Shown one piece after another: positions 10,847-36,445 of a stretch of DNA of 36,702 bases. The DNA comes from Deltaproteobacteria bacterium (GTDB taxonomy: Bacteria > Desulfobacterota > GWC2-55-46 > DRQE01). Each line of letters opens with the position of its first letter. Positions within the stretch are counted from its first letter, which is position 1. Below the pieces are notes generated by a model that saw nothing but the letters and a program-made list of their open reading frames with translations, was not told the DNA's origin and searched no databases. Position numbers and translations under genes: made by a program. The stretch is from the NCBI GenBank assembly GCA_024278765.1, contig JAJRSM010000001.1:1-36702 (forward strand), written 5' to 3'.

Positions 10847-11515
10847 ATGGTAGTAAGAGCCTCATATCATAAAGAACTAAACACGCTCGAAGACGATGTC
10901 GTTCGCATGGGAAAAATGGCAGGGGACGCCGTAAAGGCCTCTGTTATCGCACTGCAAGAACGCGACCTGACGACCTCTAAAAAAATCATAAAAGACGATA
11001 AAAAGATAAATACCCTACGCTATGACATTGAAGAGCGTTGTCTCTTGCTGATAGCAACGCAGCAACCAATGGCCAGAGACCTGCGCACTATCGCAGCGCT
11101 CCTTAGCATCATCACAGACCTGGAACGCATCGGAGACCACGCCGAAGGTAACGCAAGGATCAGCCTGCTTATCGGCGATAAACCACTGATAAAACAAACC
11201 GTCGGCCTAAGTAAGATGGCCGCTCAGGGCATCTCAATGCTAGAACGTTGCCTCGTCGCCTTTAAAGAACGCGATAAAGAAACCGCAAAGATCATCTGTG
11301 ATGAGGACGATATAGTAGACGACCTATACGATAAAGACTATAGAGAAATCCTTGACATAATGATAAACGACACTTCGCTTATTCAGGAAGGCACCTACAT
11401 GACCTGGGCCGGCCATAACCTGGAGCGCGTCGCCGACCGGGTAACCAATATAGCAGAACGAGTCGTCTTTATGGTTACAGGCAAGATGGAAGAACTAAAC
11501 GTCTCAAAGTACTAG
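10847..11515 (+). CDS. phoU: Phosphate transport regulator PhoU
   Basis: The 222-residue protein has two PhoU repeats, each a three-helix bundle. The motifs LERIGDHAEGNARI (first repeat) and HNLERVADRVTNIAERVVFM (second repeat) carry the conserved acidic and Asn residues used for metal binding. PhoU links the Pst transporter to the PhoR kinase and keeps the Pho regulon off when phosphate is plentiful. The ATG at 10847 follows AGGGAGA. It is the last gene of the pst operon. phoR and phoB are not in the window. Confidence 0.95.
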   Translation: MVVRASYHKELNTLEDDVVRMGKMAGDAVKASVIALQERDLTTSKKIIKDDKKINTLRYDIEERCLLLIATQQPMARDLRTIAALLSIITDLERIGDHAEGNARISLLIGDKPLIKQTVGLSKMAAQGISMLERCLVAFKERDKETAKIICDEDDIVDDLYDKDYREILDIMINDTSLIQEGTYMTWAGHNLERVADRVTNIAERVVFMVTGKMEELNVSKY

Positions 11516-11940
11516 GCAACTGCGTTGAGCAACTCACTGCGTGAGGGCTAAAGCCCCTTCGGGGCAAAGACAGACCTTTATCGATGGGGGGGCTGTGCGT
11601 TATATAAGATAATATTAATGAATATGCTGTACGCAGTACCCCTGCGGTGGGGCACTCACTGCGTGAGGGCAACTGCGGTGGGGCAAAGTCCATCAGAAAG
11701 TTCCTTACTGTTCGTAGTAATAAATCATCTTTATGAATTTGCTGTGCGGCAAGTACCCTGCGGTGGGGCACTCACTGCGGGTGAGCTAAAGCCCCATGCG
11801 GGGTGGCAAAGCGGCTTCGCCGCAAAAAACAGACCTTTATCGATGGGGGCTGTGCGTTGTATAAGATAATATTAATGAATTTGCTGTACGCAGTACCCAC
11901 ATGCGTGGGGGCAAAGCGGCTTCGCCGCAATATAAACCAT
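11516..11940. repeat. Mosaic of short hairpin modules (locus B)
   Basis: No gene. The same module types as at 1-360 are present: CTCACTGCGTGAG, GCGGCTTCGCCGC, GCCCCTTCGGGGC, CCCTGCGGTGGGG and CCCACATGCGTGGG, joined by GGCAA or GGCTAAA linkers. A longer unit beginning CAGACCTTTATCGATGGGGG and running to ATATTAATGAAT occurs twice (about 11570-11625 and 11830-11881). TGCTGTACGCAGTACCC also recurs here and at locus A. Arms vary between modules but remain self-complementary. Open frames in this stretch are repeat artefacts. Confidence 0.75.
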
Positions 11941-12038: not shown

Positions 12039-12045
12039 TCTTTTA

Positions 12046-12126
12046 CGTAGGGCAGCCCTTTAGGGTTGCGTCTTTTCAATACAACCTTAAAATACAAATA
12101 CTGCAAGGCTAAAGCCTTGCCCTACG
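12046..12126. repeat. Miniature inverted-repeat element, copy 1
   Basis: The ends are CGTAGGGCA and TGCCCTACG, a perfect inverted repeat. Just inside each end is a smaller hairpin, AGCCCTTTAGGGTT on the left and AAGGCTAAAGCCTT on the right, around an AT-rich centre. A second copy of the same design lies at 14366-14444. The two copies bracket the KAP NTPase cassette and the CDGSH gene. No transposase is encoded, so a MITE-like or REP-like element is inferred. Confidence 0.65.
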
Positions 12127-12209
12127 TTTAAAAACCCTTGTATAGGGAATTTTTTTGTGCGTAAAAGCCCGCAACTCATCAAATCTTGCAAAAATGTAAA
12201 CACTGGCTA

Positions 12210-12238
12210 TTGACAATGCAGAGGGGCGTACCTATATT
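12210..12238 (+). promoter_or_regulatory. Consensus sigma-70-type promoter of the KAP NTPase gene
   Basis: TTGACA at 12210-12215 and TATATT at 12233-12238 are separated by exactly 17 nt, near-perfect for the housekeeping sigma factor. The start codon lies 55 bp downstream of the -10 box, and AGGAG precedes it. This suggests constitutive expression of the accessory gene. The gap between the repeat element and this promoter holds nothing else recognisable. Confidence 0.7.
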
Positions 12239-12293: not shown

Positions 12294-12650
12294 ATGAAAA
12301 TAAAACCTTCCAAACTTAATATTCCAAAGGACGACCCTTTTGCAGAAGATATATTAGAAAGAAAAGAAAGTGCTGAGATTCTCACACAATTCATATCTAC
12401 TATTAAAGAACCCTATGTACTAGCGATTGATTCAGCATGGGGAACAGGCAAGACTACTTTTATCCAGATGTGGTCGCAATTATTAAAAAATAATGGCTAT
12501 CCCTGTATCTATATCAATGCATGGGAAAACGACTTTAGTGACGACCCTTTAGTATCTCTTATAGGTGAAATAGATGCAGGCATTAAAGATATCAAACCAG
12601 AGAAAAGTCTTAAAACAAAGGCAAAAAAGAGCTTTGCAAAAGTTAAATAA
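12294..12650 (+). CDS. N-terminal part of the split KAP NTPase (Walker A)
   Basis: 118 residues from an ATG with an AGGAG ribosome-binding site. It carries the P-loop (SAWGTGKTTF) and the INAWENDFSDDPLVSLIGEI segment typical of KAP NTPases, then a lysine-rich stretch ending at TAA. Alone it has no Walker B and should be inactive as an NTPase. Confidence 0.6.
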   Translation: MKIKPSKLNIPKDDPFAEDILERKESAEILTQFISTIKEPYVLAIDSAWGTGKTTFIQMWSQLLKNNGYPCIYINAWENDFSDDPLVSLIGEIDAGIKDIKPEKSLKTKAKKSFAKVK

Positions 12651-12821
12651 ATTGGCTCTCAACTATTAAAAAAATCTATTCCAAATATAATAAAAGTTGC
12701 CACCTCAGATATTATCGATATTGACAAGGCATGCGCAGCCGCTATAGCAGAAACAGCAGCAAATGATGCCATTAACAAATACTCTTCTGATAAAACTAAG
12801 ATCAAAGAGTTCAAAGACAGC

Positions 12822-13691
12822 TTGAGCAAGTTTGTTGAAGATATCTCACCTCCAGATAATGAAGGCAACACAAAACCATTAATACTATTCATTGACGAGC
12901 TAGACAGATGTCGCCCAAACTTTGCTATTGAATTACTAGAAAAGGCAAAACACTTCTTCAACATAGATAATATTATCTTTATATTGGCAATAGACAAAGA
13001 ACAGCTTGGACACTCGATAAGATCAATGTATGGAGTTGGGATGAATGTAGACGGCTATCTACGCAGATTTATAAACCTTGACTATAACCTACCCGAACCA
13101 TCAACTGATGCCTTTTGCAATGCACTATTTGACAAACTGGAACTTACTAATCATTTCACAGGACAAACAGGTGTGGATAAGCACAAAGAACTTCTTTCGA
13201 CACTAAAAAAACTATTTAAGGCTTTCAATTTTAGTCTCAGAGACCAAGAACAATGTTCATCTCGGCTCAGCATTGTACTTAAAACTACACCACAAAACCA
13301 TCATATGCACCCTGCCTTCCTTGCGACCCTGATAACATTAAAAATATCTAACCAAACTTTATACACAAACTATATTAAAGGATATTCAGCCATGAATGAA
13401 ATTATTACTTATATAGGGAACACCCCTGAAGGCAAAACTTTATTAAATAGCCATTGTGGAAATATCTTAGAAGCATACTTCGCCTATGCACAATGTGACA
13501 GAGTTGAAAAACGTGAGCTTATAAATAAGTATGAGATAACGTCAAAAGATGATAGTACTTCTGAAGATGAAAAACACAAGGCGCATACTATATGTAAAAT
13601 ATCGCAACACCTTGACTTTGAGTACGACTATAACATTCTTGAATACCTTACAAAAAAAATAGAAATTGCCGAAGACTTCACACAAAAATAA
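12822..13691 (+). CDS. C-terminal part of the split KAP NTPase (Walker B)
   Basis: In the same frame as the N-terminal part. The earliest plausible restart after the TAA is TTG at 12822, without a clear Shine-Dalgarno sequence; the next in-frame ATG is near 13026, beyond Walker B. The 289 residues carry Walker B (ILFIDELDRC) and the KAP C-terminal region, then a variable tail without recognised domains. Independent translation is doubtful. Confidence 0.45.
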   Translation: MSKFVEDISPPDNEGNTKPLILFIDELDRCRPNFAIELLEKAKHFFNIDNIIFILAIDKEQLGHSIRSMYGVGMNVDGYLRRFINLDYNLPEPSTDAFCNALFDKLELTNHFTGQTGVDKHKELLSTLKKLFKAFNFSLRDQEQCSSRLSIVLKTTPQNHHMHPAFLATLITLKISNQTLYTNYIKGYSAMNEIITYIGNTPEGKTLLNSHCGNILEAYFAYAQCDRVEKRELINKYEITSKDDSTSEDEKHKAHTICKISQHLDFEYDYNILEYLTKKIEIAEDFTQK

Positions 13692-13705: not shown

Positions 13706-13736
13706 AAAAAGCCCCCTTCAATGAAGGGGGCTTTTG
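13706..13736. terminator. Bidirectional intrinsic terminator
   Basis: AAAAAGCCCCCTTC-AAT-GAAGGGGGCTTTTG: a GC-rich stem of about 8 bp with T-rich flanks on both strands. It closes the KAP gene on the plus strand 15 bp after its stop and also lies 22 bp beyond the CDGSH gene stop on the minus strand, so it probably serves both converging genes. Confidence 0.8.
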
Positions 13737-13757: not shown

Positions 13758-13997
13758 TTATCCTAACTTCGAATGCTCGCCGTCGCAGTACGGTGGGCGT
13801 TTTGTGTGTCTGCACATACACATCGGGACGGTTTTTTTCTTATCCAAGGTGAATTTAAGCGGAGTAAACTCCGTGCCCTTATGCGAGCCATCGCAAAAAG
13901 GCTGTTTCTCTGATCTGCCGCAGGCACACCAATAATAATCCCCGGCCTCCAACTCCATTATCATCGCATTCTTTGCTGCTACCGTTGGTTCACTCAT
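13758..13997 (-). CDS. Two-motif CDGSH-type iron-sulfur protein
   Basis: A 79-residue protein with two CDGSH motifs (mitoNEET/MiNT class): Cys24, Cys26, Cys35 and His39 ([18 protein letters not shown]), and Cys60, Cys62, Cys71 and His75 ([17 protein letters not shown]). Each three-Cys, one-His set can bind a redox-active, acid-labile [2Fe-2S] cluster, so one chain could carry two clusters. There is no signal peptide or membrane anchor, so it is predicted cytoplasmic. Function in bacteria is not settled; electron transfer or cluster donation is assumed for the family. AGGAGG precedes the ATG. It stands alone between repeat regions and converges on the KAP gene. Confidence 0.9.
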
Positions 13998-14618
13998 TTA
14001 AAACCCCCTCCTTTGATTACAATCAAAATATAGTTAGACAAAAGTCAGCCTCGCCGACCATAGAAAGTCTGATTATAGCGGAGTTAAGAGAAACCGCAAA
14101 TGACCTTATTAAATCCTCCTCAGTTCCCTGCCGTAATGATGCCCCGTCTCAAAGATAGAAAAGACAAAACCAGATTGCTTTGCTACGGAGCTAAGCTCCT
14201 CCGCTCGCAATGACAATAATAAAAACAGATGCTGAAACAAGTTCAGCATGAAAGATTGGATATTTTTTTATTAAACGGTGTTTCGGTGCGTCCCCGCCCC
14301 GACTACCTGCGGTAGAGCATAGCGACTGCGTCGCAAGTACCAGGCATTAAATTACACTATCTTTTATAGGGCAACCCTTTAGGGTTGCGTCTTTATAAAA
14401 CAACTTATACAATACAAAAAATAAGGCTCAAACCTTGCCCTACGTTTCTTAATACCTTCTCGGCCAGAATGCATTCGCCGATCAGTCCTTGCGAGGACAA
14501 AGGACGAAGCAATCTCGCCTTTATAAATCCCCCTCTATCCCCCCGTCTGAGACGGCCACATGCTTTTCCAAAGGGGGAAGTAGAAACAAACTACTCAACT
14601 ATTTCGAAAGCACGTCAT
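13998..14618. other. Repeat-rich intergenic region downstream of glyQ
   Basis: No gene is supported in these 621 bp. The stretch holds two dispersed repeats of the GAAGCAATCT type (14171-14215 and 14484-14516), a half-copy of the element seen at 371-459 (about 14229-14250), copy 2 of the miniature inverted-repeat element, and a CCCCCT...AGGGGG inverted segment near 14528-14580. glyS, which commonly follows glyQ, is absent here. Confidence 0.6.
14366..14444. repeat. Miniature inverted-repeat element, copy 2
   Basis: Begins TATAGGGCAACCC and ends TTGCCCTACG. It shares the outer inverted repeat, the CCCTTTAGGGTTGCGTCTTT segment and the AAGGCT...CCTTGCCCTACG right end with copy 1 at 12046-12126, and lies in the same orientation. 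The spacer between the hairpins has diverged, so the copies are not a very recent duplication. Confidence 0.65.
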
Positions 14619-15494
14619 TTATCCTGTCTTATTAAGCAGCGGAAAACCAAGATCTTCCCTGACCTTCAGGTAACCTTTGGCGCAGCCCTTCGCAAGGTTT
14701 CTAACACGTCCGATAAAACGGGCTCGCTCAGTCACACTTATAGCCCCTCTGGCATCCAGAAGATTAAATGTATGCGAAGACTTCAGGCAATAATCATAGG
14801 CCGGCAGGACCAAGCCCTTATCGATCAGCCTTAGCGATTCCTTCTCGTATATATCAAATAAGGTAAAGAGCATCTTTGGATCGGACTCATCAAAGTTATA
14901 GCTGGAGAACTCGACCTCGCTGCGGTGATGGACGTCCCCGTAAGTTTTATCGTCACTCCACTTAAGATCATAGACGCTGTCTACTCCTTGCAGATACATA
15001 GAGATACGCTCTAGCCCGTAAGTAATTTCGCCGGCCACGGGCTTTATCTCAATGCCACCTGCCTGCTGAAAATAAGTAAACTGGGTAATCTCCATACCGT
15101 TTAGCCAGACCTCCCAGCCAAGCCCCCACGCGCCTAAGGTCGGGCTCTCCCAGTCGTCCTCGACAAAGCGAATGTCATGGGCGAGCGGATCTATGCCCAA
15201 AACCTTGAGGCTCTCCAGATAGAGATCCTGAATATTGTCGGGCGAGGGCTTCATAATGACCTGGAACTGATAATAATGCTGAAGCCTGTTGGGGTTCTTA
15301 CCATACCTGCCATCGGTCGGGCGGCGCGAAGGTTCGACATAGGCCGCCTTCCACGGCTCCGGGCCAAGGACTCGCAGAAAGGTCGCCGGATGGAATGTCC
15401 CCGCGCCCATCTCCATATCATAGGGCTGCTGCAAGAGGCATCCCTTATCAGCCCAAAACTTTTGTAGATTTAAAATAACATCCTGAAAATTCAT
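14619..15494 (-). CDS. glyQ: Glycyl-tRNA synthetase alpha subunit
   Basis: Catalytic alpha chain of the bacterial alpha2beta2 glycyl-tRNA synthetase, 291 residues. The start [19 protein letters not shown] is characteristic, followed by the class II motifs in [35 protein letters not shown], and [16 protein letters not shown] (motif 3 region). The ATG at 15494 is preceded by CAGGAGA; an in-frame start 30 bp upstream would add non-family residues. It follows recO on the minus strand. The partner glyS is not downstream as usual, so the beta subunit must be encoded elsewhere. The start region is part of a tandem duplication at 15484-15678. Confidence 0.95.
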
Positions 15495-15678
15495 ATAGTC
15501 TCCTGTATCTAAGCCAAATGGCAAACAGTCGTATTATAAAACATCTGCACAGTATTTAAAGGCCGTTGCAGCTATAAAGCCGTTTCGGCCTCATGAAAAT
15601 TCATATAGTTTCCTGTATTCAAGTCAAATGGCAAACTGTCGTATTATAAAGTACCCTGCATAGTATTTAAAAGGCCGT
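15484..15678 (-). repeat. Tandem duplication of the recO-glyQ junction
   Basis: Two diverged copies of about 83 bp lie 110 bp apart (15484-15566 and 15594-15678). Each contains, on the minus strand, a recO-end-like ACGGCCTTT(T)AA, a TTTATAATACGAC segment with a good -10 (TATAAT), the GTTTGCCATTTG segment, a ribosome-binding site, and ATGAATTTTCA, the first codons of glyQ. The glyQ-proximal copy starts the real gene; the other opens a 10-codon frame. Confidence 0.8.
15572..15604 (-). CDS. Possible 10-aa leader peptide upstream of glyQ
   Basis: The recO-side duplicate retains a ribosome-binding site (CAGGAAACT) and an ATG, and reads MNFHEAETAL then TAG. The first three residues match glyQ. The following sequence can pair GGCCG with CGGCC. 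It may be only a duplication relic, or it may be translated and affect glyQ expression. No glycine codons are present, so classical attenuation by glycine is not suggested. Confidence 0.25.
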   Translation of the reverse strand: MNFHEAETAL

Positions 15679-24824: not shown

Positions 24825-26012
24825 TTAATGTCCACTCGATGGCGGCATAACAGTCTTAAAGGTAACACCCGGGAAGATGCGCCTGAAGAGTGCAATAGAT
24901 AGTATCGTCGCAGCACCCACGGCTAGGGTCGTTGTAATCCCTATGCCGCCGCCCAGAAGCGGAGTCTCACCAAAGGCCGAGTTAACCATAAGATACCGGT
25001 TTACCCATAGCCCTATACAGACCAAAGCAGCTACCGCGCCAAGTGCGCTCGTTGAGGTCATCATACGCCTGAAGACCAAGGCTAAAAATGGTAGAACAAA
25101 TAACGTAAGCATCATAAAGATAAAGATCGGCAGATACTCGCCGGTCATCTGCCTCATTACAGGCTCAGACCTATGCGGAACATTCGTATACCACATAACG
25201 ATATACTGCGACCAGAACATATATATCCAGAGTAGCGCAAAACTTATCATGGTTTTAGAGATACCCTCTTTATTTACACCTTCGACGTCCACACCTGGCT
25301 TCCTCTTAATAAAGAAGAATGACATCAGAAAGAGAAACGCACCGCCAGCAAAGGCATTTCCAACCCAGTAAAATGGCGCGAAGATAGTACTCTCCCAGTG
25401 CGACCAGATCATCATACCGAAGTCCCAGGCAAGGTTCGTATTTACAATAACAAATGTTATTCCTACAAGTGCTGCGAAGACATTTACAGCCTTCTCCATG
25501 CCTCGCGTAACACCGGGGGTATCAGAGCCGAGATCTGCATGAGACGCAGCCATTGCACGTTCTTCTTTACGCCCAAGCCTAAAGTATATATAGGCTACAA
25601 CATAGAATAGGATACTCGTAATTACTATTCGCCAGTAGAAAAAGGTCTTATTGAGCCAAGGGCTCATCGGAGCACCGTGCCCGCCGCCGTGCCCTGCGTC
25701 TGCCACCGGATGCGCCCAGTAAAAGAGATGATCAACACCACCGATACCAACGGCCAGAAAGAGAATAATCGCAACAGGTATAAAAGATAAGGTGATAATC
25801 TCGCCAAGGCGCATATAGTTCCTGCCCCACCTAGACTTTGAGACGCGGAACATAACAGAGAATATTATTCCGCCCTGCGTTATGCCAAGGAAGAAGATAA
25901 GATTAACCGAGAGCATCGACCAGTGAATACGAGGCTCGCCCGTGGTAAATACGGTCGCAACAAAGGTTATAACCCCTAAAATAATCAGACCTATTAATAT
26001 TCCGTAGCGCAT
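24825..26012 (-). CDS. actF: ACIII membrane subunit ActF (NrfD-like)
   Basis: Integral membrane subunit of alternative complex III, 395 residues with about ten transmembrane helices (first RYGILIGLIILGVITFVATVF, last LAVGAATILSIALF). It is a shorter paralogue of ActC and belongs to the NrfD-like family. The segment SVNLIFFLGITQGGIIFSVMFRV resembles the quinol-site helices of the family. A His/Gly-rich loop (ADAGHGGGHGAP) lies between helices. It is the last gene of the operon, 39 bp after actE and before a strong terminator. Smaller accessory subunits seen in some ACIII operons are not present after it. Confidence 0.85.
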   Translation of the reverse strand: MRYGILIGLIILGVITFVATVFTTGEPRIHWSMLSVNLIFFLGITQGGIIFSVMFRVSKSRWGRNYMRLGEIITLSFIPVAIILFLAVGIGGVDHLFYWAHPVADAGHGGGHGAPMSPWLNKTFFYWRIVITSILFYVVAYIYFRLGRKEERAMAASHADLGSDTPGVTRGMEKAVNVFAALVGITFVIVNTNLAWDFGMMIWSHWESTIFAPFYWVGNAFAGGAFLFLMSFFFIKRKPGVDVEGVNKEGISKTMISFALLWIYMFWSQYIVMWYTNVPHRSEPVMRQMTGEYLPIFIFMMLTLFVLPFLALVFRRMMTSTSALGAVAALVCIGLWVNRYLMVNSAFGETPLLGGGIGITTTLAVGAATILSIALFRRIFPGVTFKTVMPPSSGH

Positions 26013-26051: not shown

Positions 26052-26579
26052 TTACTTCGTGGCTGTTGCTTCGCCAAATACGTGCTTTATATAATTAACA
26101 ATATGCCAACTGTCGACCTGCTCCATTGAATCGCCGTAAGGAGGCATTATAAACATTCCACCATTTACAATTGTATAGAAGATGTCGCCGTCAGGCTTAT
26201 CCTGCGTATAAGATGCAGTTAGGTCGGTCGGCGGGATAAACTTCTTACCAACCGGGCCGTCTCCCTTACCACCTGCGCCGTGACAAGTCGCGCAGTAGGT
26301 ATCGTACTTAACCTTGCCACGCTCCAGCGATGCCTTGGTCGCCTCTACCGGATTTGCAATCGTCTGCGCTGCCCCTCTGTCTGCTGCGTAGGTTAACCTG
26401 CCGCCAAAAGGCACAGTCCCCTCGGGGGTCGCTAGTGCCTTGCTTTCCTGAGCCTGTTCTGATTTTTGTTCAAACATATCCCAAGACCACGGCATGGCAC
26501 TGACCGAGACAGGAACTGCCACAAGGGTAAGAAGCAAGGCCAAGAAAAGCGGCTTATATATGAAAGTCTTACCAGCCAT
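26052..26579 (-). CDS. actE: ACIII monohaem cytochrome c subunit ActE
   Basis: Periplasmic c-type cytochrome of about 175 residues, with one haem site CATCH at 96-100 and a likely Met ligand in GGMFIMPPYGDSM. The ATG at 26579 begins MAGKTFIYKPLFLALLLTLV, a clean signal peptide or anchor, with GGGGAGG upstream; an upstream in-frame ATG at 26645 would add 22 basic residues and bury the signal, so it is rejected. No lipobox cysteine is seen, unlike some ActE proteins. It overlaps actD by 11 bp. Its role is electron exit from the complex to a soluble carrier or oxidase. Confidence 0.87.
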   Translation of the reverse strand: MAGKTFIYKPLFLALLLTLVAVPVSVSAMPWSWDMFEQKSEQAQESKALATPEGTVPFGGRLTYAADRGAAQTIANPVEATKASLERGKVKYDTYCATCHGAGGKGDGPVGKKFIPPTDLTASYTQDKPDGDIFYTIVNGGMFIMPPYGDSMEQVDSWHIVNYIKHVFGEATATK

Positions 26580-27081
26580 CGACTGTTTTGACCTCCCCTG
26601 CACCGGATTCCTTAAGAACCTTCTCGACATGCTTAAATTTTTCATCGCTCACGTCCTCTATTACTAAGCCGAAACCGTCCTGAGTCCATATCTCAGGAAT
26701 ATCTATCTTCTTCTTAATGGGCAATGTATTGCTCAAAATCATAAAACCAATAAAGGTAAATAGAACTCCGAATAGGATAAAAAACACATACGCCAACAGT
26801 ATCGTCGGCGTAGCCGAGAAGAGCGGACGTCCGCCTCTTGGCAAAACATAAAGTGCCGATGTACCCAGAGAGAAAACAACGGCAATGATAATTCCATTGA
26901 TAGCGCCAAAGCCTGTAAAAAACTTCAGATAATTGGTACGCCTGCCAAATTCCGCCTCCAATTCATGATCAAGCGGGATGGCCGAATGCACCTCTACGCC
27001 GTAACCCGCGCCCTTAAGGGTGCGCGCCGCCGCTATGATGTGATCTGCGTAATAGAACATTCCAAGCACTGTATTTGACAT
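26569..27081 (-). CDS. actD: ACIII membrane subunit ActD (DUF3341)
   Basis: The 170-residue protein has a soluble N-terminal part (MFYYADHIIAAARTLKGAGY, EVHSAIPLDHE), two transmembrane helices (GAINGIIIAVVFSLGTSALYV and ILLAYVFFILFGVLFTFIGF) and a short C-terminal domain (VIEDVSDEKFKHVEKVLKES). This is the DUF3341/ActD layout. It has no cofactor motifs and is probably structural, contacting the ActC and ActF helices. It starts one base after the actC stop, showing coupling. Confidence 0.88.
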   Translation of the reverse strand: MSNTVLGMFYYADHIIAAARTLKGAGYGVEVHSAIPLDHELEAEFGRRTNYLKFFTGFGAINGIIIAVVFSLGTSALYVLPRGGRPLFSATPTILLAYVFFILFGVLFTFIGFMILSNTLPIKKKIDIPEIWTQDGFGLVIEDVSDEKFKHVEKVLKESGAGEVKTVDGW

Positions 27082-27082
27082 A

Positions 27083-28417
27083 TTAATGCCCCTCTTTCTT
27101 CATGGGTACGCCTTGATCCTCTTTAACTTCAAAGAAGGAAAGAACAGGGAATATCTTAATAGAGATCATAAAGAGCGTTATAAAGAACGTCACCGCCCCC
27201 ACCGATATCAGGATCTCGACCAGGGTCGGGAAGTACTCATGCCACATCCATGGCAGGAACTTCCTGGAGAGCGCATTAGGTACGATCAAGAACCTCTCAA
27301 GCCACATACCTATCATAATAAAGATGCAGGCAATCATCACGACCGCCGGTTTTGTCCTTATTCGCTTGAATATATAGATAAGCGGCAGCACCGAGTTAGT
27401 GAACAACATAAAGAAGAAGAGATATCCATGAGGCCAACTGAGTATCTTATATCTTAGCGACTCATTCTCTACAGATATATTCGCGTACAGCCCTGTTAAG
27501 ATCTCCATCGCCGTCAGATAGGTCCAGACAAAACAGAGCAAAAGGATTACCTTACCCATGCTGTCGTAATGATACTCGGTTATATATTTCTTAAAGGGAG
27601 GGTATCCCCATCTCAGTATCGTAAGCATGATGGTAACGCCGGCAAAACCTGAGAGCAATGCGCCCGTAACAAAGTAAGGGGCAAAGACCGTCTTTGAGTA
27701 ACCCGGCACGACCGAGAGCGCAAAGTCCCAGGAGACTATACTATGGACGGATACGACCAGAGGCATAATAAACGAGGCGAAGAGCATAGTAGCTCTACCA
27801 TGAATAAACCACTGGGTGTCAGTCCCCTTCCAGTTAAAGCTCAAGAGCGTGTACAGCTCCTTTCTCCATCCCGTCGTGTTGTGCTTAAGTACGGCAAAGT
27901 CAGGGATCATTCCGAAGAAGAGGAAGATAACACTACTGGTAAAATAAGTACCGATGGCAAAGACATCAAACATGATCGGGCTCTGAAAGTTCGTCCAGAT
28001 CATCCTGGTCGACGGGTACGGCATCGTCCAGTAGAGGTTCCAGGGTCTGCCCATATGAATAAAGATAAACAAGGTGACGATGATAAGACCAAATAACGTC
28101 ATCGTCTCGGCGCCTCGTGCGATAGATCTTCGCCACGGCGTCTTGGTAATATAAAGCATCGCAGAGATCAGAGTACCTGCGTGAGCAACACCAACCCAGA
28201 AGATAAAGTTAACGAGATATAGTCCCCAGAGGTTTGGAACATTCAGCCCTGTTACGCCCTGACCTACCATAACCTGAATACCCCACGGAATCCAGAAACA
28301 GACCAAAGAGGCAGCGGCAAATAGGGCTACAACAGCGTAGTACCTCCAGCCGGTCTTTGTCATAAAGCCGATCAGATCTTTATTAATATCGCTATAAGCT
28401 ATCTTAGTCTCACTCAT
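27083..28417 (-). CDS. actC: ACIII membrane subunit ActC (NrfD-like)
   Basis: Integral membrane subunit with about ten transmembrane helices, 444 residues, in the NrfD/PsrC family. It is the likely site of menaquinol oxidation. The segments LYLVNFIFWVGVAHAGTLISAMLY and IWTNFQSPIMFDVFAIGTYFTSS resemble ActC, and SFIMPLVVSVHSIVSWDFAL, with its His, is well conserved in the family. It begins 2 bp after the actB2 stop. It donates electrons to the iron-sulfur chain of ActB2. Confidence 0.9.
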   Translation of the reverse strand: MSETKIAYSDINKDLIGFMTKTGWRYYAVVALFAAASLVCFWIPWGIQVMVGQGVTGLNVPNLWGLYLVNFIFWVGVAHAGTLISAMLYITKTPWRRSIARGAETMTLFGLIIVTLFIFIHMGRPWNLYWTMPYPSTRMIWTNFQSPIMFDVFAIGTYFTSSVIFLFFGMIPDFAVLKHNTTGWRKELYTLLSFNWKGTDTQWFIHGRATMLFASFIMPLVVSVHSIVSWDFALSVVPGYSKTVFAPYFVTGALLSGFAGVTIMLTILRWGYPPFKKYITEYHYDSMGKVILLLCFVWTYLTAMEILTGLYANISVENESLRYKILSWPHGYLFFFMLFTNSVLPLIYIFKRIRTKPAVVMIACIFIMIGMWLERFLIVPNALSRKFLPWMWHEYFPTLVEILISVGAVTFFITLFMISIKIFPVLSFFEVKEDQGVPMKKEGH

Positions 28418-28419
28418 TA

Positions 28420-29352
28420 TTAATGACCACCGTCTTGAGTCTTCTTACCGTGAGTATCTTTTATAGCGTGGGCCGTATCAGCCGTGCTGCCGTGCTCGGC
28501 AATGGTATTATGGGCCGCAGCCATGCCTGTTTCGTGTCCAGCGCTTGCGTGCAAAGGCTCCTGGACCCTTCTAAGATATATTACGGAAGGCCTTGTGTTA
28601 AGGTCTCCGAGTAGATTATAACGCCTTTTGCTCTTGGCAAGTATCGAGACCCTGCTCTTTGGATCATTAAGGTCGCCAAAGCTTATCGCCCCGGTTGGAC
28701 ATGACTGGCCGCAGGCAGGACTTACTTCGCCGTCCTTTACCCTTCTGCGCCCGTCATCCTTTGCCGTGTCCTTAGCACCCCTTATTCGCTGAATGCAGAA
28801 AGAACACTTCTCCATAATACCCATCTCTCTGATGGTGACCTCGGGGCTTAACTGCTGCTCCAGAGGGGTATCCCATTTATAGGTATACCAGTTGAAACGC
28901 CGCACATCATACGGACAATACGTCGCACATGTATAAGTACCGACACACCTGTTATAGACCTGCACATTCAAGCCGTCCTGATTGTGATAAGTAGCGTAAA
29001 CAGGACAACCAAGCTCGCAAGGAGCACTGTCGCAGTGCTGGCACATTACAGGCAGAAACCTTACCTTTACGTCAGGGTACTCACCCTCGACGTAACGCTC
29101 AAGCCTTAACCATCCCATATGACGCCCTATACCAACCTCGGATTTGCCAACAACCGGCAGGTTGTTCTCAGCGTAGCATGCAGTCGTACAAGAACCACAA
29201 CCATTACAACGGTCCAGATCTATAACCATCGTCCAATGATAATCAAACTTCTCGTAGTAGCCGGGTACGCGGTAAGCAGCCAGCTGATCCTTAATCCTCT
29301 CAGGTATAGTCTTGCGATCAGCCGGATCGATATATTTGGTTTTTTTACTCAC
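28420..29352 (-). CDS. ACIII iron-sulfur subunit (ActB2 as a separate gene)
   Basis: The 310-residue protein has four ferredoxin-type cysteine groups: DRCNGCGSCTTAC near 48, CQHCDSAPCELGCP near 104, NRCVGTYTCATYCPYD at 135, and EKCSFC with ACGQSCP later. In the third group the second cysteine is replaced by Thr139 (C136-T139-C142-C146), which predicts a [3Fe-4S] cluster beside three [4Fe-4S] clusters, as reported for ACIII. No signal peptide is present, so it probably crosses as a partner of the Tat-targeted ActB1. The C-terminal tail of about 40 residues is rich in His, Ala and Gly. In well-studied ACIII this domain is fused to ActB1; here it is separate. Confidence 0.88.
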   Translation of the reverse strand: MSKKTKYIDPADRKTIPERIKDQLAAYRVPGYYEKFDYHWTMVIDLDRCNGCGSCTTACYAENNLPVVGKSEVGIGRHMGWLRLERYVEGEYPDVKVRFLPVMCQHCDSAPCELGCPVYATYHNQDGLNVQVYNRCVGTYTCATYCPYDVRRFNWYTYKWDTPLEQQLSPEVTIREMGIMEKCSFCIQRIRGAKDTAKDDGRRRVKDGEVSPACGQSCPTGAISFGDLNDPKSRVSILAKSKRRYNLLGDLNTRPSVIYLRRVQEPLHASAGHETGMAAAHNTIAEHGSTADTAHAIKDTHGKKTQDGGH

Positions 29353-31641
29353 CTAAACATCCTCCTTGCCGATCTTCGCAAATTCTGCGGGACTAATAAT
29401 CTTTGTATAATCTCTACCGTACTCGAAGTTATTGGCCGCGGCCCTTACAAGAGAATCATCGCTTCCCTTCTTGGCACGTCCCTTACGACTAAGGCTTGCA
29501 CGCGTAGAGTTAAGGGCTAATTCGCCGCTCTTTTTATCTTCTATAAAAGGCAGGATCTCAAGCGGATTAGCACCTCTGTCTTTTGCGATACGTCCGTACT
29601 GAGTATGGCCCTGCCCGATAGGAATAGCTATGGTATCAGGCCTTATAGCAGCATATATATGGGCCGGCAGTTCAATACTGCCGCTTGGTGTACTTACCGA
29701 GACGGTATCGCCTTCTTTGATCTTAAGCTTTTCGGCAGTCTTCGGGTTTATCTCTACCCAACTGCCCCAGACTACAGCCGTCATGGTATCAGGGAACTCC
29801 TGCAACCAAGGGCTGTTTGCCCCCCTGCCGTCATACATACCAGTAGACGGATATACTAAAAGATTTAACGGATAGCTGGACTTATCACCCTCGAACTTAG
29901 CTGCGGCCTTTGGCAGATAATTCTTTACAGAGGCTACCGATACATTTCTAGTTCTGGTGCGAGGCGTGCTCTTAGGCCACCAACCGCCGTTCTCCAGCAA
30001 CCTATTCCAAAAGTCAGTAAAGGTCAGGGCCGAGTTGGCCATTGCCTTATTACTATTATAAAGTTTCTTCCAAGATTTTTTCAGGTACTTATTAAAGGTC
30101 CCATGGTCAAACTTGTCTGCGAGCTTTCCACCTTGGGCCTTTGCTAGCGCTATATAAATATCACCCCTGCTTTTTGTCTTAAATACCGGTGCTACGGCTG
30201 GCTGCATAATCGTCGCCACGCCCATACCAACGCCGGGCTCAGTAAAGTCATCGCCCCAGTCTTCATAGAAAGTATTGGTCGGCAGTATAATATCTGACAT
30301 TGCCGAGCTCTCATCAATAAAGGTCGCAAAGCTAACCACAAAAGATACTTCCCTTATCGCCTGCATTATCTTTGACGACTTAGGTATGGTAAATACAGGG
30401 TTTGTATTGTCTATAATAAGGGCCTTAGCATTGCCGGCCAAGGATGCGTCTATAAATCTTGTCATCTTCTGATTTTTAAGGATTGCGCGCTTACCGGCCT
30501 TAAGAAGCCTCTCAGGGTTAATTAGGACTCCGCCCTTACGCCCGATATTGCCTGCCAGATGGTTAAGGATATTTACAGCAACCTGACCTGAGATGCCATC
30601 CTTATAGCTCGACAGTGCGTCTCCGCCGATTACAAGGCTTGGCGTGGTCTTTGCCAGATCATAGGCGATCTTACTGATAGTCTCTGCGGCAACGTCAGTT
30701 GCCTTACTTGCGCTCGCAAGCTTATAAGGGGCTAAAAGCGTCTTCCATGCCCCTGCATTAGAGCCGCGATAATAACCCTTGGCAAGGATCTCTCTTGCTA
30801 TGGCCAAGGCTAGAATCGCCTCACTTCCGGGCCTTGCCGGAACCCACTTATCGGCATTCGCACCGGTCAGCGACATACGTGGCTCGACCTGAACAAGCAC
30901 TCCTCGCTTGCTCTTCTTACCACCGCCTTGGCGCATCTGCCCGTAACCATGACTAAGCCCTACGGGAGATAACCAGGTAGATGCAAAATCAGCACCAAAA
31001 CTCAGGAGATACTTGGTGTTTTCAATATCGTAGAAAGGCACGTCCTCAGTACCAACCGTGACGCCACCTGCATATTTCAGGTTTTTATTCTGGAAAAGAT
31101 CATATTCGATATGGTTCTTTGAGCCGTAGGCACTCATAAACTCTTCGGCGAGCTTGCCGAGATGGCCGCGCTCGCTGCTGGAGACAAGCCAGAGCTTATC
31201 CGCATTGCCATCATCACTGAGCCCTTTCAGCTTACCGGCTACGGTCTTTAAGGCCTCATCCCAGCTTATCGGGGTGTACCTGCCGCTGCCTCGGTCACCG
31301 CTCCTTTTCATAGGGCCGACAATCCTATCTGGGTTATAAAGGGCCTGCAAACCCGACTGGCCTCTTGCGCAGAGCCCGCCCTTATTAACAGGGTGCAGAG
31401 GGTTTCCCTCGACCTTCTTGGCACGCCCTTCAAGCACCTTAACTAGGATTCCACAGCCCGCCCCGCACTGGCGACATACACTGGCATACCACGTAGCCAC
31501 GCCCGGAATCATATCCTTCGGGGGAATAAGATAAGGGATCAGCTTTGCTCCGGGTGGACTGGCGATCTTAGCTGCCGCAAGCCCTGCACCTGTGCCAACA
31601 ACTCCGGCCCCTATATATTTTAGAAAATCTCTACGTTTCAT
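29353..31641 (-). CDS. ACIII molybdopterin-oxidoreductase-like subunit (ActB1)
   Basis: The 762-residue protein belongs to the complex iron-sulfur molybdoenzyme family. The N-terminus MKRRDFLKYIGAGVVGTGAG is a Tat signal, so it folds in the cytoplasm and is exported. A C-x2-C-x3-C-x27-C set (Cys56, 59, 63, 91; CRQCGAGC ... GGLCARG) keeps the classic [4Fe-4S] ligands. No Cys, SeCys or Asp in a molybdenum-ligand context is evident after it, in line with the metal-free ActB1 of ACIII. The C-terminal domain (NPKTAEKLKIKEGDTVSVST) is the usual beta-barrel. Its stop is adjacent to the actB2 start. The other act genes make a polysulfide- or nitrate-reductase role unlikely. Confidence 0.87.
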   Translation of the reverse strand: MKRRDFLKYIGAGVVGTGAGLAAAKIASPPGAKLIPYLIPPKDMIPGVATWYASVCRQCGAGCGILVKVLEGRAKKVEGNPLHPVNKGGLCARGQSGLQALYNPDRIVGPMKRSGDRGSGRYTPISWDEALKTVAGKLKGLSDDGNADKLWLVSSSERGHLGKLAEEFMSAYGSKNHIEYDLFQNKNLKYAGGVTVGTEDVPFYDIENTKYLLSFGADFASTWLSPVGLSHGYGQMRQGGGKKSKRGVLVQVEPRMSLTGANADKWVPARPGSEAILALAIAREILAKGYYRGSNAGAWKTLLAPYKLASASKATDVAAETISKIAYDLAKTTPSLVIGGDALSSYKDGISGQVAVNILNHLAGNIGRKGGVLINPERLLKAGKRAILKNQKMTRFIDASLAGNAKALIIDNTNPVFTIPKSSKIMQAIREVSFVVSFATFIDESSAMSDIILPTNTFYEDWGDDFTEPGVGMGVATIMQPAVAPVFKTKSRGDIYIALAKAQGGKLADKFDHGTFNKYLKKSWKKLYNSNKAMANSALTFTDFWNRLLENGGWWPKSTPRTRTRNVSVASVKNYLPKAAAKFEGDKSSYPLNLLVYPSTGMYDGRGANSPWLQEFPDTMTAVVWGSWVEINPKTAEKLKIKEGDTVSVSTPSGSIELPAHIYAAIRPDTIAIPIGQGHTQYGRIAKDRGANPLEILPFIEDKKSGELALNSTRASLSRKGRAKKGSDDSLVRAAANNFEYGRDYTKIISPAEFAKIGKEDV

Positions 31642-31692
31642 TAGCGGTCTCTATAATAGTTCTCAATTAAAATCTCTATAAATATCTTCGCC

Positions 31693-32214
31693 CTATATAT
31701 GGCAGGTCCAGCAATCTCTTCCGTTCTCAACCTTCTTCTCCATATGGCAAGACAGACACCATCCCATCTTAAGCGAAGAGACCCTTGAGACCCTTGGCAT
31801 CGAGGCTACATCGCCGTGACACTCGGTGCACTGCAGGCCGGCCTTTATATGCCTCTTATGCGGATAGACAACGTGGTCAGGCAAGTTATGGACCTTTACC
31901 CATGGAATTGGCTCTTTATCGTCCCAGTACTTCTTAAGCTTCTTGATCTCTGGTGAGTCGGTCTTAATGACATTATGGCAACCCATGCATTTTCTGACAT
32001 TAGGCACACCCGAGTGCCTTGAACGCTCGGCGTAAATATGACAGTACTGACACGGAATACCGTTATCTCCGGCATGGATAACATGGCTGAACTCTATTGG
32101 TTGGACAGGAGTCCTTCCTGTTAGATAGGTATCACCCAGCTTATAACCGATCAAAACGGTTACGACCAAGACTATAAAACATATGATTAGAGTTCTTATT
32201 CTCATCTCACCCAC
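31693..32214 (-). CDS. actA: ACIII pentahaem cytochrome c subunit ActA
   Basis: The 173-residue protein has one N-terminal transmembrane anchor (RIRTLIICFIVLVVTVLIGY) and five CxxCH haem sites at 55-59, 76-80, 129-133, 153-157 and 168-172. Five haems matches ActA of characterised ACIII. The chain ends right after the fifth site and is compact for the family. Other His residues (FSHVIHAGD, HNLPDHVVYPHKRHIKAG) can serve as distal ligands. It heads the act operon and would form the periplasmic electron wire with ActE. Confidence 0.9.
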   Translation of the reverse strand: MGEMRIRTLIICFIVLVVTVLIGYKLGDTYLTGRTPVQPIEFSHVIHAGDNGIPCQYCHIYAERSRHSGVPNVRKCMGCHNVIKTDSPEIKKLKKYWDDKEPIPWVKVHNLPDHVVYPHKRHIKAGLQCTECHGDVASMPRVSRVSSLKMGWCLSCHMEKKVENGRDCWTCHI

Positions 32215-35272: not shown

Positions 35273-36445
35273 ATGAACTATAAAGGTTATTTAAAGATAG
35301 TCTTTGTCTTAGCTATCGCGGCTACTGTGCTCACGGCCTGTGCACCGACGGTGCGGATCTCAAAGCTCAAACCGGCTAGAGTAAGCACCGCCGCCCACCT
35401 CAACAAGATAACCGTCCTTACCTTTGACGGCAAAAAAGGCCGCAAAATATCGCACAGATTAAAAAAGATGCTCGAAGATATTTATGTAGGTGGCGAACCG
35501 TACTTCTCAGTCGTTAGTGAAGATACCTTCTACGACCGCGCAAGCGGCAAGCAATGCAAAACGTGCCTGGACGAGAAAAACTTATTAACTCTGGCAAAGG
35601 CAACTGGCGCGGACGCAGTCCTTGCCGGCAGCGTAACCGAGAACTCATGTACGGCAGAACTATTTGAAAAAAAAGAGACTAGATGTATCGAAGAAACCAT
35701 CTTTAAAAAAGGCGCAGAACCTGAGTGCACCAGATGGCGAGAGTTCTACAGGCCGTGCGTAAAAAGCACGGCAAGCTACGAATTCCAAGTAAGACTCGTT
35801 GAGATCAAGACCGGACACTACATCTATACCGATTCCTTTCAGAGCAAATGGCAGAGCACCACATGCCGAGACAACATGGAACCACAATCATACTACGGAG
35901 GACTGAGGTCAAGGTCATACAGGTCAACCCTTATAGAACTTGCCGGTGCGCCACGCCGCCCCCTGCGGTGCAGGTCCGAATTGGAGGAAGAGTTGCTTAA
36001 CAATGCCTTCAACACTGCTTATTCAAAGGCAGAGCAAGAGATACCGCACAACATTGCCCCGTACTATGAATCGATCAGGATATCCCTTATGACCTCAACT
36101 AAAGGCATAAAAGATACCAAAGCCAAAGCACTCCTGTCTAACGGAGTAAAACTTGCCAGAAATCACAACCTCACCACGGCATGCAACCTATGGAAGGAGG
36201 CTAAAGCTATAACCACTGAGTCATCATCACTCACATATAACCTGGGGGTCTGTGCTGAGTTTAAAAATAAATTGGAGCTTGCCGAAGAGCTATATAAAAA
36301 AGCCACCGTCCAACACGGCGAGGTAAGCGATACTATATCGCAGGCCCTTAACAGAATCACAAAGAACAAAAAAGAAATGGGTCTTGTAAAAGATCAGTTA
36401 ATTGAACAAGAAAAAAGTCGCCAACGCAAAGAACCCGCACAATGA
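35273..36445 (+). CDS. Cysteine-rich lipoprotein of unknown function with TPR-like C-terminus
   Basis: The 390-residue protein begins with a lipoprotein signal (FVLAIAATVLTAC, lipobox LTAC, Cys23), so it should be anchored to a membrane. The N-terminal part (ITVLTFDGKKGRKISHRLKKML, then LAKATGADAVLAGSVTE) resembles the fold of CsgG/PelC-type and FlgT-like lipoproteins, where a small domain is asked for a paralogue search by name and level. The middle is rich in Cys (QCKTC, SCTAEL, TRCIEE, PECTRW, RPCVKS, TTCRDN, LRCRSE). The C-terminus (ACNLWKEAKAI...YNLGVCAEFKNKLELAEELYKKA) looks like one or two TPR-like helix pairs. The role is unknown. AAGGAGTTGG precedes the ATG. It follows the malic enzyme by 53 bp but has no obvious functional link. 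Confidence 0.7.
   Translation: MNYKGYLKIVFVLAIAATVLTACAPTVRISKLKPARVSTAAHLNKITVLTFDGKKGRKISHRLKKMLEDIYVGGEPYFSVVSEDTFYDRASGKQCKTCLDEKNLLTLAKATGADAVLAGSVTENSCTAELFEKKETRCIEETIFKKGAEPECTRWREFYRPCVKSTASYEFQVRLVEIKTGHYIYTDSFQSKWQSTTCRDNMEPQSYYGGLRSRSYRSTLIELAGAPRRPLRCRSELEEELLNNAFNTAYSKAEQEIPHNIAPYYESIRISLMTSTKGIKDTKAKALLSNGVKLARNHNLTTACNLWKEAKAITTESSSLTYNLGVCAEFKNKLELAEELYKKATVQHGEVSDTISQALNRITKNKKEMGLVKDQLIEQEKSRQRKEPAQ

What the first reader, a model, noticed from the sequence alone, without database searches (positions are those of the whole stretch)
12294..13691. KAP-family NTPase split by a single in-frame TAA between Walker A and Walker B
Walker A (codons 47-54) and Walker B (near codon 197) lie in one frame, separated only by the TAA at 12648-12650. 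The gene has a near-consensus promoter, a ribosome-binding site and a terminator of its own, is AT-rich, and sits in a repeat-rich accessory slot. PifA of plasmid F, a phage-exclusion factor, is described as a KAP NTPase, so this could be a defence gene that is newly inactivated, kept as two chains, or read through. The rest of the reading frame shows no further damage, which argues for very recent loss or for a functional split.
Basis: partly seen in the sequence, partly recalled or inferred. Interest (0 to 1): 0.6.

Follow-up and report, generated by a model that had tools for sequence, protein, structure and literature searches.

The report
Phage-defence ATPase gene with premature stop
An uncultured bacterium carries a horizontally acquired single-gene phage-defence candidate (a KAP-family ATPase, PADLOC type PDC-S20) that is intact except for one premature stop codon; it is most likely a very recently inactivated copy, an ordinary fate for this gene family, and not a working split or read-through gene.

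Summary
Window 12294-13691 is one 465-codon frame broken only by TAA at 12648-12650, between Walker A (codons 47-54) and Walker B (codons 196-202). Both halves match Pfam KAP_NTPase. Read through, the protein matches PADLOC's phage-defence candidate PDC-S20 over its whole length (507 bits, profile positions 1-463 of 464), as well as intact homologues do.

All 90 intact relatives aligned have a sense residue at codon 119, a variable position in a helical linker. The frame after the stop shows no other decay: 44 of 44 columns conserved in at least 80% of relatives are unchanged. The second half has no usable start (first in-frame TTG at codon 177, first ATG at 245, past Walker B). TAA is a normal stop here, and none of 40 tRNAs reads it. 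These facts weigh against a functional split or read-through. They favour a very recent nonsense mutation, or an assembly or strain-level artefact that only reads could exclude.

The gene is accessory: sister genomes keep pstB-phoU/glyQ-recO without it, its G+C is 35% against 47% for the window, and phage relatives lie near repressors or integrases. KAP genes are already reported to become pseudogenes often. New copy of a known kind; interest is low.

The parts
12210..12238 (+). promoter-like site TTGACA-17-TATATT
   Evidence: 11 of 12 consensus; consensus match only
12294..12647 (+). N-terminal piece of the KAP NTPase, codons 1-118, with Walker A (12432-12455)
   Evidence: Pfam KAP_NTPase 9.8e-13; PDC-S20 profile positions 1-116
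12648..12650 (+). premature in-frame TAA at codon 119, in the helical linker between beta-2 and the Walker B strand
   Evidence: all 90 intact relatives have a sense residue in this column; model helix 104-125
12651..13691 (+). C-terminal piece of the KAP NTPase (codons 120-465 and stop) with Walker B (12879-12899); no start codon of its own before codon 177
   Evidence: Pfam 1e-24; PDC-S20 profile 114-463, 334.5 bits; start scan
13707..13735 (+). intrinsic terminator, 13-bp stem, can serve both strands
   Evidence: inverted repeat I6
13758..13997 (-). CDGSH iron-sulphur protein gene, second gene in the same accessory stretch
   Evidence: Pfam zf-CDGSH 2.5e-18; no match at the same place in sister genomes
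12040..12136 (.). copy of a dispersed repeat with inverted ends, upstream of the gene
   Evidence: 37 matches in the genome
14361..14447 (.). second copy of that repeat, downstream of the CDGSH gene
   Evidence: 84% identical to the first
10847..11515 (+). phoU, left conserved neighbour of the insertion
   Evidence: Pfam PhoU; synteny in sister genomes
14619..15524 (-). glyQ, right conserved neighbour of the insertion
   Evidence: Pfam tRNA-synt_2e; synteny in sister genomes

Best explanation
A nonsense allele of a single-gene, PDC-S20-type KAP P-loop NTPase, acquired horizontally into the phoU-glyQ gap and lost very recently. The intact protein would be an ASCE/KAP ATPase of about 465 residues without an obvious transmembrane insertion: an N-terminal ATPase core with an inserted helical linker, and a helical C-terminal half. 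By analogy with PifA, Tmn, QatA and phage-borne relatives, it probably senses phage infection or excludes superinfecting phage in an ATP-dependent way. In this genome translation stops after codon 118, leaving a piece with Walker A but no Walker B strand and no C-terminal half, which should be inactive. Shown here: family, domain layout, the single lesion, conservation elsewhere, accessory location, missing restart. Inferred: the defence role of the intact protein, inactivity of the 118-residue piece, recency.
For: Family: PDLC04959 PDC-S20 507 bits over 1-463 of 464; intact homologues score the same (517.7 for G155; 499.9 and 517.6 for L005 and L006). The nearest intact homologue is 48% identical end to end and in frame through the site. 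Nonsense is specific to this copy: of 41 matches in 395 genomes of the phylum only this one has a stop, and 0 of 80 viral relatives show one in the aligned part. No other decay: 0 deviations at 34 columns conserved in at least 90%, and 0 at 44 conserved in at least 80%, before or after the stop. A random substitution makes a stop here with probability 0.048, so no further stop means fewer than about 61 neutral substitutions (4.4% of sites) at 95%, and about 20 if one mutation in ten is a frameshifting indel (my estimate). No restart site. Accessory: G005 has a 55-bp phoU-glyQ gap, and G007 and G001 have gaps without KAP or CDGSH. A published statement that KAP genes often become pseudogenes recently (PMC3995785).
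Against: Gene, promoter and terminator are all otherwise intact, which is also what an assembly error or a maintained read-through gene would show. Reads and sister strains are unavailable. Defence activity of PDC-S20 is a computational candidacy; no paper naming PDC-S20 was found in the library.
Confidence: 0.78

Rival explanations
1. Assembly or consensus error, or a minority strain allele, in a draft metagenome-type assembly: the gene is really intact in most cells.
For: Draft of 123 contigs, no reads available; the rest of the frame is perfect; no other species of the same genus was among the relatives sampled for comparison.
Against: No frameshift or homopolymer indel is involved, only one codon; consensus substitution errors are rare in short-read assemblies (general knowledge; the sequencing method of this assembly is not known to me).
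Confidence: 0.13
2. The stop is read through (basal, or induced by a phage suppressor tRNA), so that small amounts of a full-length defence ATPase are made, perhaps only on infection.
For: Frame after the stop fully conserved; gene retains promoter, ribosome-binding site and terminator.
Against: TAA followed by A is not a known read-through context (general knowledge); TAA ends 9 of 18 checked window genes; none of 40 tRNAs reads TAA; no relative has a stop there.
Confidence: 0.04
3. Functional split: Walker A and Walker B halves are made as two chains that reassemble.
For: The break falls in a variable helical linker (helix 104-125, then low confidence 126-160), between Walker A and Walker B, where KAP proteins tolerate insertions (general knowledge).
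Against: No ATG/GTG/TTG in frame until TTG at codon 177, first ATG at codon 245, beyond Walker B; no good ribosome-binding site at TTG 12822. No relative made as two chains was found; the one broken KAP seen (G205) is interrupted by what look like transposase remnants.
Confidence: 0.04

Closest known systems
PADLOC PDC-S20 (PDLC04959), single-gene phage-defence candidate of the KAP group
   Same: Full-length match, 1-463 of 464, same size and motifs; stands alone
   Different: Carries a premature stop at codon 119; defence activity of members not tested here
KAP_NTPase domain, Pfam PF07693
   Same: Both halves over the curated cut-off of 20 bits
   Different: Split by the stop; the predicted model shows no obvious transmembrane insertion, although many KAP proteins have one
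PifA of plasmid F
   Same: KAP ATPase region matches, 85.8 bits
   Different: PifA profile is 720 positions, only 25-350 match; not PifA itself
QatA of the Qat defence system
   Same: P-loop region matches, about 58-61 bits
   Different: Far below the NCBIfam cut-off of 600; the neighbours are phoU, CDGSH and glyQ genes, not a Qat operon
Tmn, a KAP defence ATPase with two transmembrane segments (PMC11846954)
   Same: KAP family with reported anti-phage activity
   Different: Not compared by sequence here; the predicted model of this protein shows no obvious transmembrane insertion
RdrA of RADAR
   Same: Best solved-structure matches of the model, E 7.6e-05
   Different: TM-score only about 0.3, 13% identity; a shared ATPase fold, not membership

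Membership tests
PDC-S20 (PADLOC PDLC04959) | profile match over the full length | tested here: met
   2e-152, 1-463 of 464 when the stop is read as a residue
PDC-S20 (PADLOC PDLC04959) | one intact open reading frame | tested here: not met
   TAA at codon 119; so this copy is a disrupted member
PDC-S20 (PADLOC PDLC04959) | anti-phage activity | not testable with these tools
   needs phage challenge
KAP P-loop NTPases (PF07693) | profile over the curated cut-off | tested here: met
   48.4 and 87.8 bits for the halves, 140.7 joined, cut-off 20
KAP P-loop NTPases (PF07693) | Walker A lysine and Walker B Asp-Glu | tested here: met
   K53, D201, E202 invariant in 91 of 91 aligned
QatA | NCBIfam NF041923 score of at least 600 | tested here: not met
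   61.5 bits
PifA | full-length match to the 720-position profile | tested here: not met
   only profile positions 25-350
recoded or read-through gene | stop conserved among relatives, or a tRNA for it | tested here: not met
   90 of 90 relatives have a sense residue; no TAA-reading anticodon in 40 tRNAs

The most novel reading that the evidence does not exclude
The stop is a regulatory device: a defence ATPase kept silent by TAA and made only when a phage (for example through its own suppressor tRNA or disturbed termination) causes read-through, so that the stop acts as an infection sensor.
Probability: 0.02. Interest if true: 0.8.

Novelty: new member of a known kind. Interest (0 to 1): 0.18.

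Why it matters
It documents a very recent inactivation of a single-gene KAP defence candidate whose frame is otherwise perfectly kept, which fits the reported rapid gain and loss of KAP genes under phage pressure. For annotation it shows a PDC-S20 copy that gene callers will report as two fragments. If the stop were shown to be suppressible on infection it would be much more important, but nothing found here points that way.

Tried and rejected
Functional split: rejected for lack of a start for the second half and lack of split relatives. Recoding of TAA: rejected by window stop usage and the tRNA set; the 40th tRNA, not called by ARAGORN, reads as an Ala-type CGC anticodon in the Rfam alignment. 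Flanking repeats as a special mobile element carrying the gene: weakened, since the repeat has 37 matches genome-wide. Search for the same gene in the same family, order or class: none over threshold except a weak 18.6-bit match in one same-order genome, so no close pair for dN/dS or for dating the loss. The viral scan with the single protein found nothing; the scan with the alignment gave 80 loci. Papers naming PDC-S20: none. The original KAP family paper is not held. A first regular expression for Walker A in the viral set was too strict and was replaced.

Full report
Observation. Window 12294-13691 on the + strand reads as ATG, 118 codons, TAA at 12648-12650, 346 codons, TAA. Shuffling the same bases gives on average 33.6 stops in this frame (minimum 19 in 2000), so an otherwise clean frame of 465 codons is not chance. 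Both halves match Pfam KAP_NTPase on their own (9.8e-13 and 1e-24), and a six-frame search of the genome gives a single joined match of 140.7 bits with one TAA inside.

Family. With the stop read as a residue, the protein matches PADLOC's single-gene phage-defence candidate PDC-S20 (PDLC04959) from position 1 to 463 of 464 with 507 bits; PifA (85.8 bits) and QatA (58 bits) match the ATPase part only, and QatA falls far below the NCBIfam cut-off. 'Phage defence candidate' (PDC) is PADLOC's name for genes proposed as defence genes (as used in PMC11514479); no paper naming PDC-S20 was found. Intact homologues of the same group score 500-518 bits. The nearest, in another family of the same phylum, is 48% identical over the whole length and runs through the site without a stop. 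Invariant residues include K53 of Walker A and D201/E202 of Walker B (91 of 91 aligned). A model (mean pLDDT 73) puts codon 119 near the end of a helix (104-125) followed by a poorly predicted linker (126-160) before the Walker B strand at 196-201. Solved structures nearest to the model are RdrA of the RADAR defence system (E 7.6e-05, TM about 0.3), which shows a shared ATPase fold only.

Is the break a pseudogene, a split or a read-through? Codon 119 is aligned to a sense residue in all 90 intact relatives, of variable, mostly polar kind. No relative has a stop: 1 of 41 matches in 395 genomes of the phylum has one, namely this gene, and none of 80 viral relatives does in its aligned part (two of the 80 looked shortened or frame-shifted and were left out of the conservation test). 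The window protein departs from none of the 44 columns conserved in at least 80% of relatives, before or after the stop. So there has been no measurable decay since the stop arose, or there is no stop in reality. About 4.8% of all single substitutions in this frame would create a stop; the absence of a second one bounds the neutral change since loss at about 4% of sites (95%), and nearer 1.6% if frameshifting indels make up a tenth of mutations (my assumption).

A split gene needs a start for the second half. In frame after the stop there is no ATG, GTG or TTG until TTG at 12822 (codon 177), without a good ribosome-binding site, and no ATG until 13026 (codon 245), which is past Walker B. Read-through or recoding is not supported either: 9 of 18 checked window genes end in TAA, and none of the 40 tRNAs of the genome has an anticodon that reads TAA (39 by ARAGORN; the weak 40th has CGC in the Rfam alignment).

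Origin and setting. In the same family of genomes the order pstB-phoU facing glyQ-recO is conserved: the gap is 55 bp in G005, 634 bp of repeat-like sequence in G007, and 1043 bp with an unrelated reading frame in G001; none holds the KAP gene or the CDGSH gene that share the 3.1-kb gap in the window. No genome of the same family, order or class that was searched has a PDC-S20 match at threshold. The gene has 35% G+C between neighbours of about 49-50%. It is therefore an acquired gene in a variable slot. The ~97-bp repeats on both sides have 37 matches in the genome and need not have brought it. Relatives on phages sit singly beside an S24 repressor (Helicobacter prophage), between a CI repressor and an integrase (Vibrio furnissii element), and near the integrase of a Vibrio anguillarum phage, where phages often keep superinfection and defence genes (general knowledge). 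A Campylobacter prophage study reports the same kind of placement, proposes superinfection immunity, and states that KAP genes appear to be frequently subject to recent pseudogene formation (PMC3995785). Tmn is another KAP ATPase with anti-phage activity (PMC11846954).

Conclusion. The most likely reading is a very recent nonsense mutation in an acquired KAP ATPase defence candidate. The main rival is an assembly or strain-level artefact, which cannot be tested without reads. A split or regulated read-through is possible but unsupported. The finding is real, and ordinary for this gene family.

Noticed in passing
L029 (G205:C146:1000-6000), minus strand, locus 321-2900: Another KAP gene of the same phylum is broken between Walker A and Walker B by about 600 bases that look, by eye, like remnants of a transposase; a second example of KAP gene disruption.
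   Followed up: partly
window 11520-11930: Interleaved repeats of 25-54 nt (units starting CTGCGGTGGGGCACTCACTGCG and CTGTGCGTTATATAAGATAATATTAATGAAT) fill the space after phoU.
   Followed up: no
window 12040-12136 and 14361-14447: Dispersed element with inverted ends (CGTAGGGCA ... TGCCCTACG), 37 full or partial matches in the genome; looks like a MITE or REP-type repeat.
   Followed up: partly
L049 1795-2838 (G001) and L048 1944-2578 (G007): The phoU-glyQ gap holds different material in each genus: an unrelated reading frame (looks by eye like a secreted beta-propeller protein) in one, ATTTTATA-rich repeats in the other. A variable slot.
   Followed up: partly
window 26055-32214: Cluster of ActD, NrfD-like, 4Fe-4S, molybdopterin oxidoreductase and cytochrome c genes, probably an alternative complex III type module; the ActD and cytochrome frames overlap by about 77 bases.
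   Followed up: no
window 24825-26012 and 35273-36445: Two long reading frames (395 and 390 aa) without any Pfam match.
   Followed up: no
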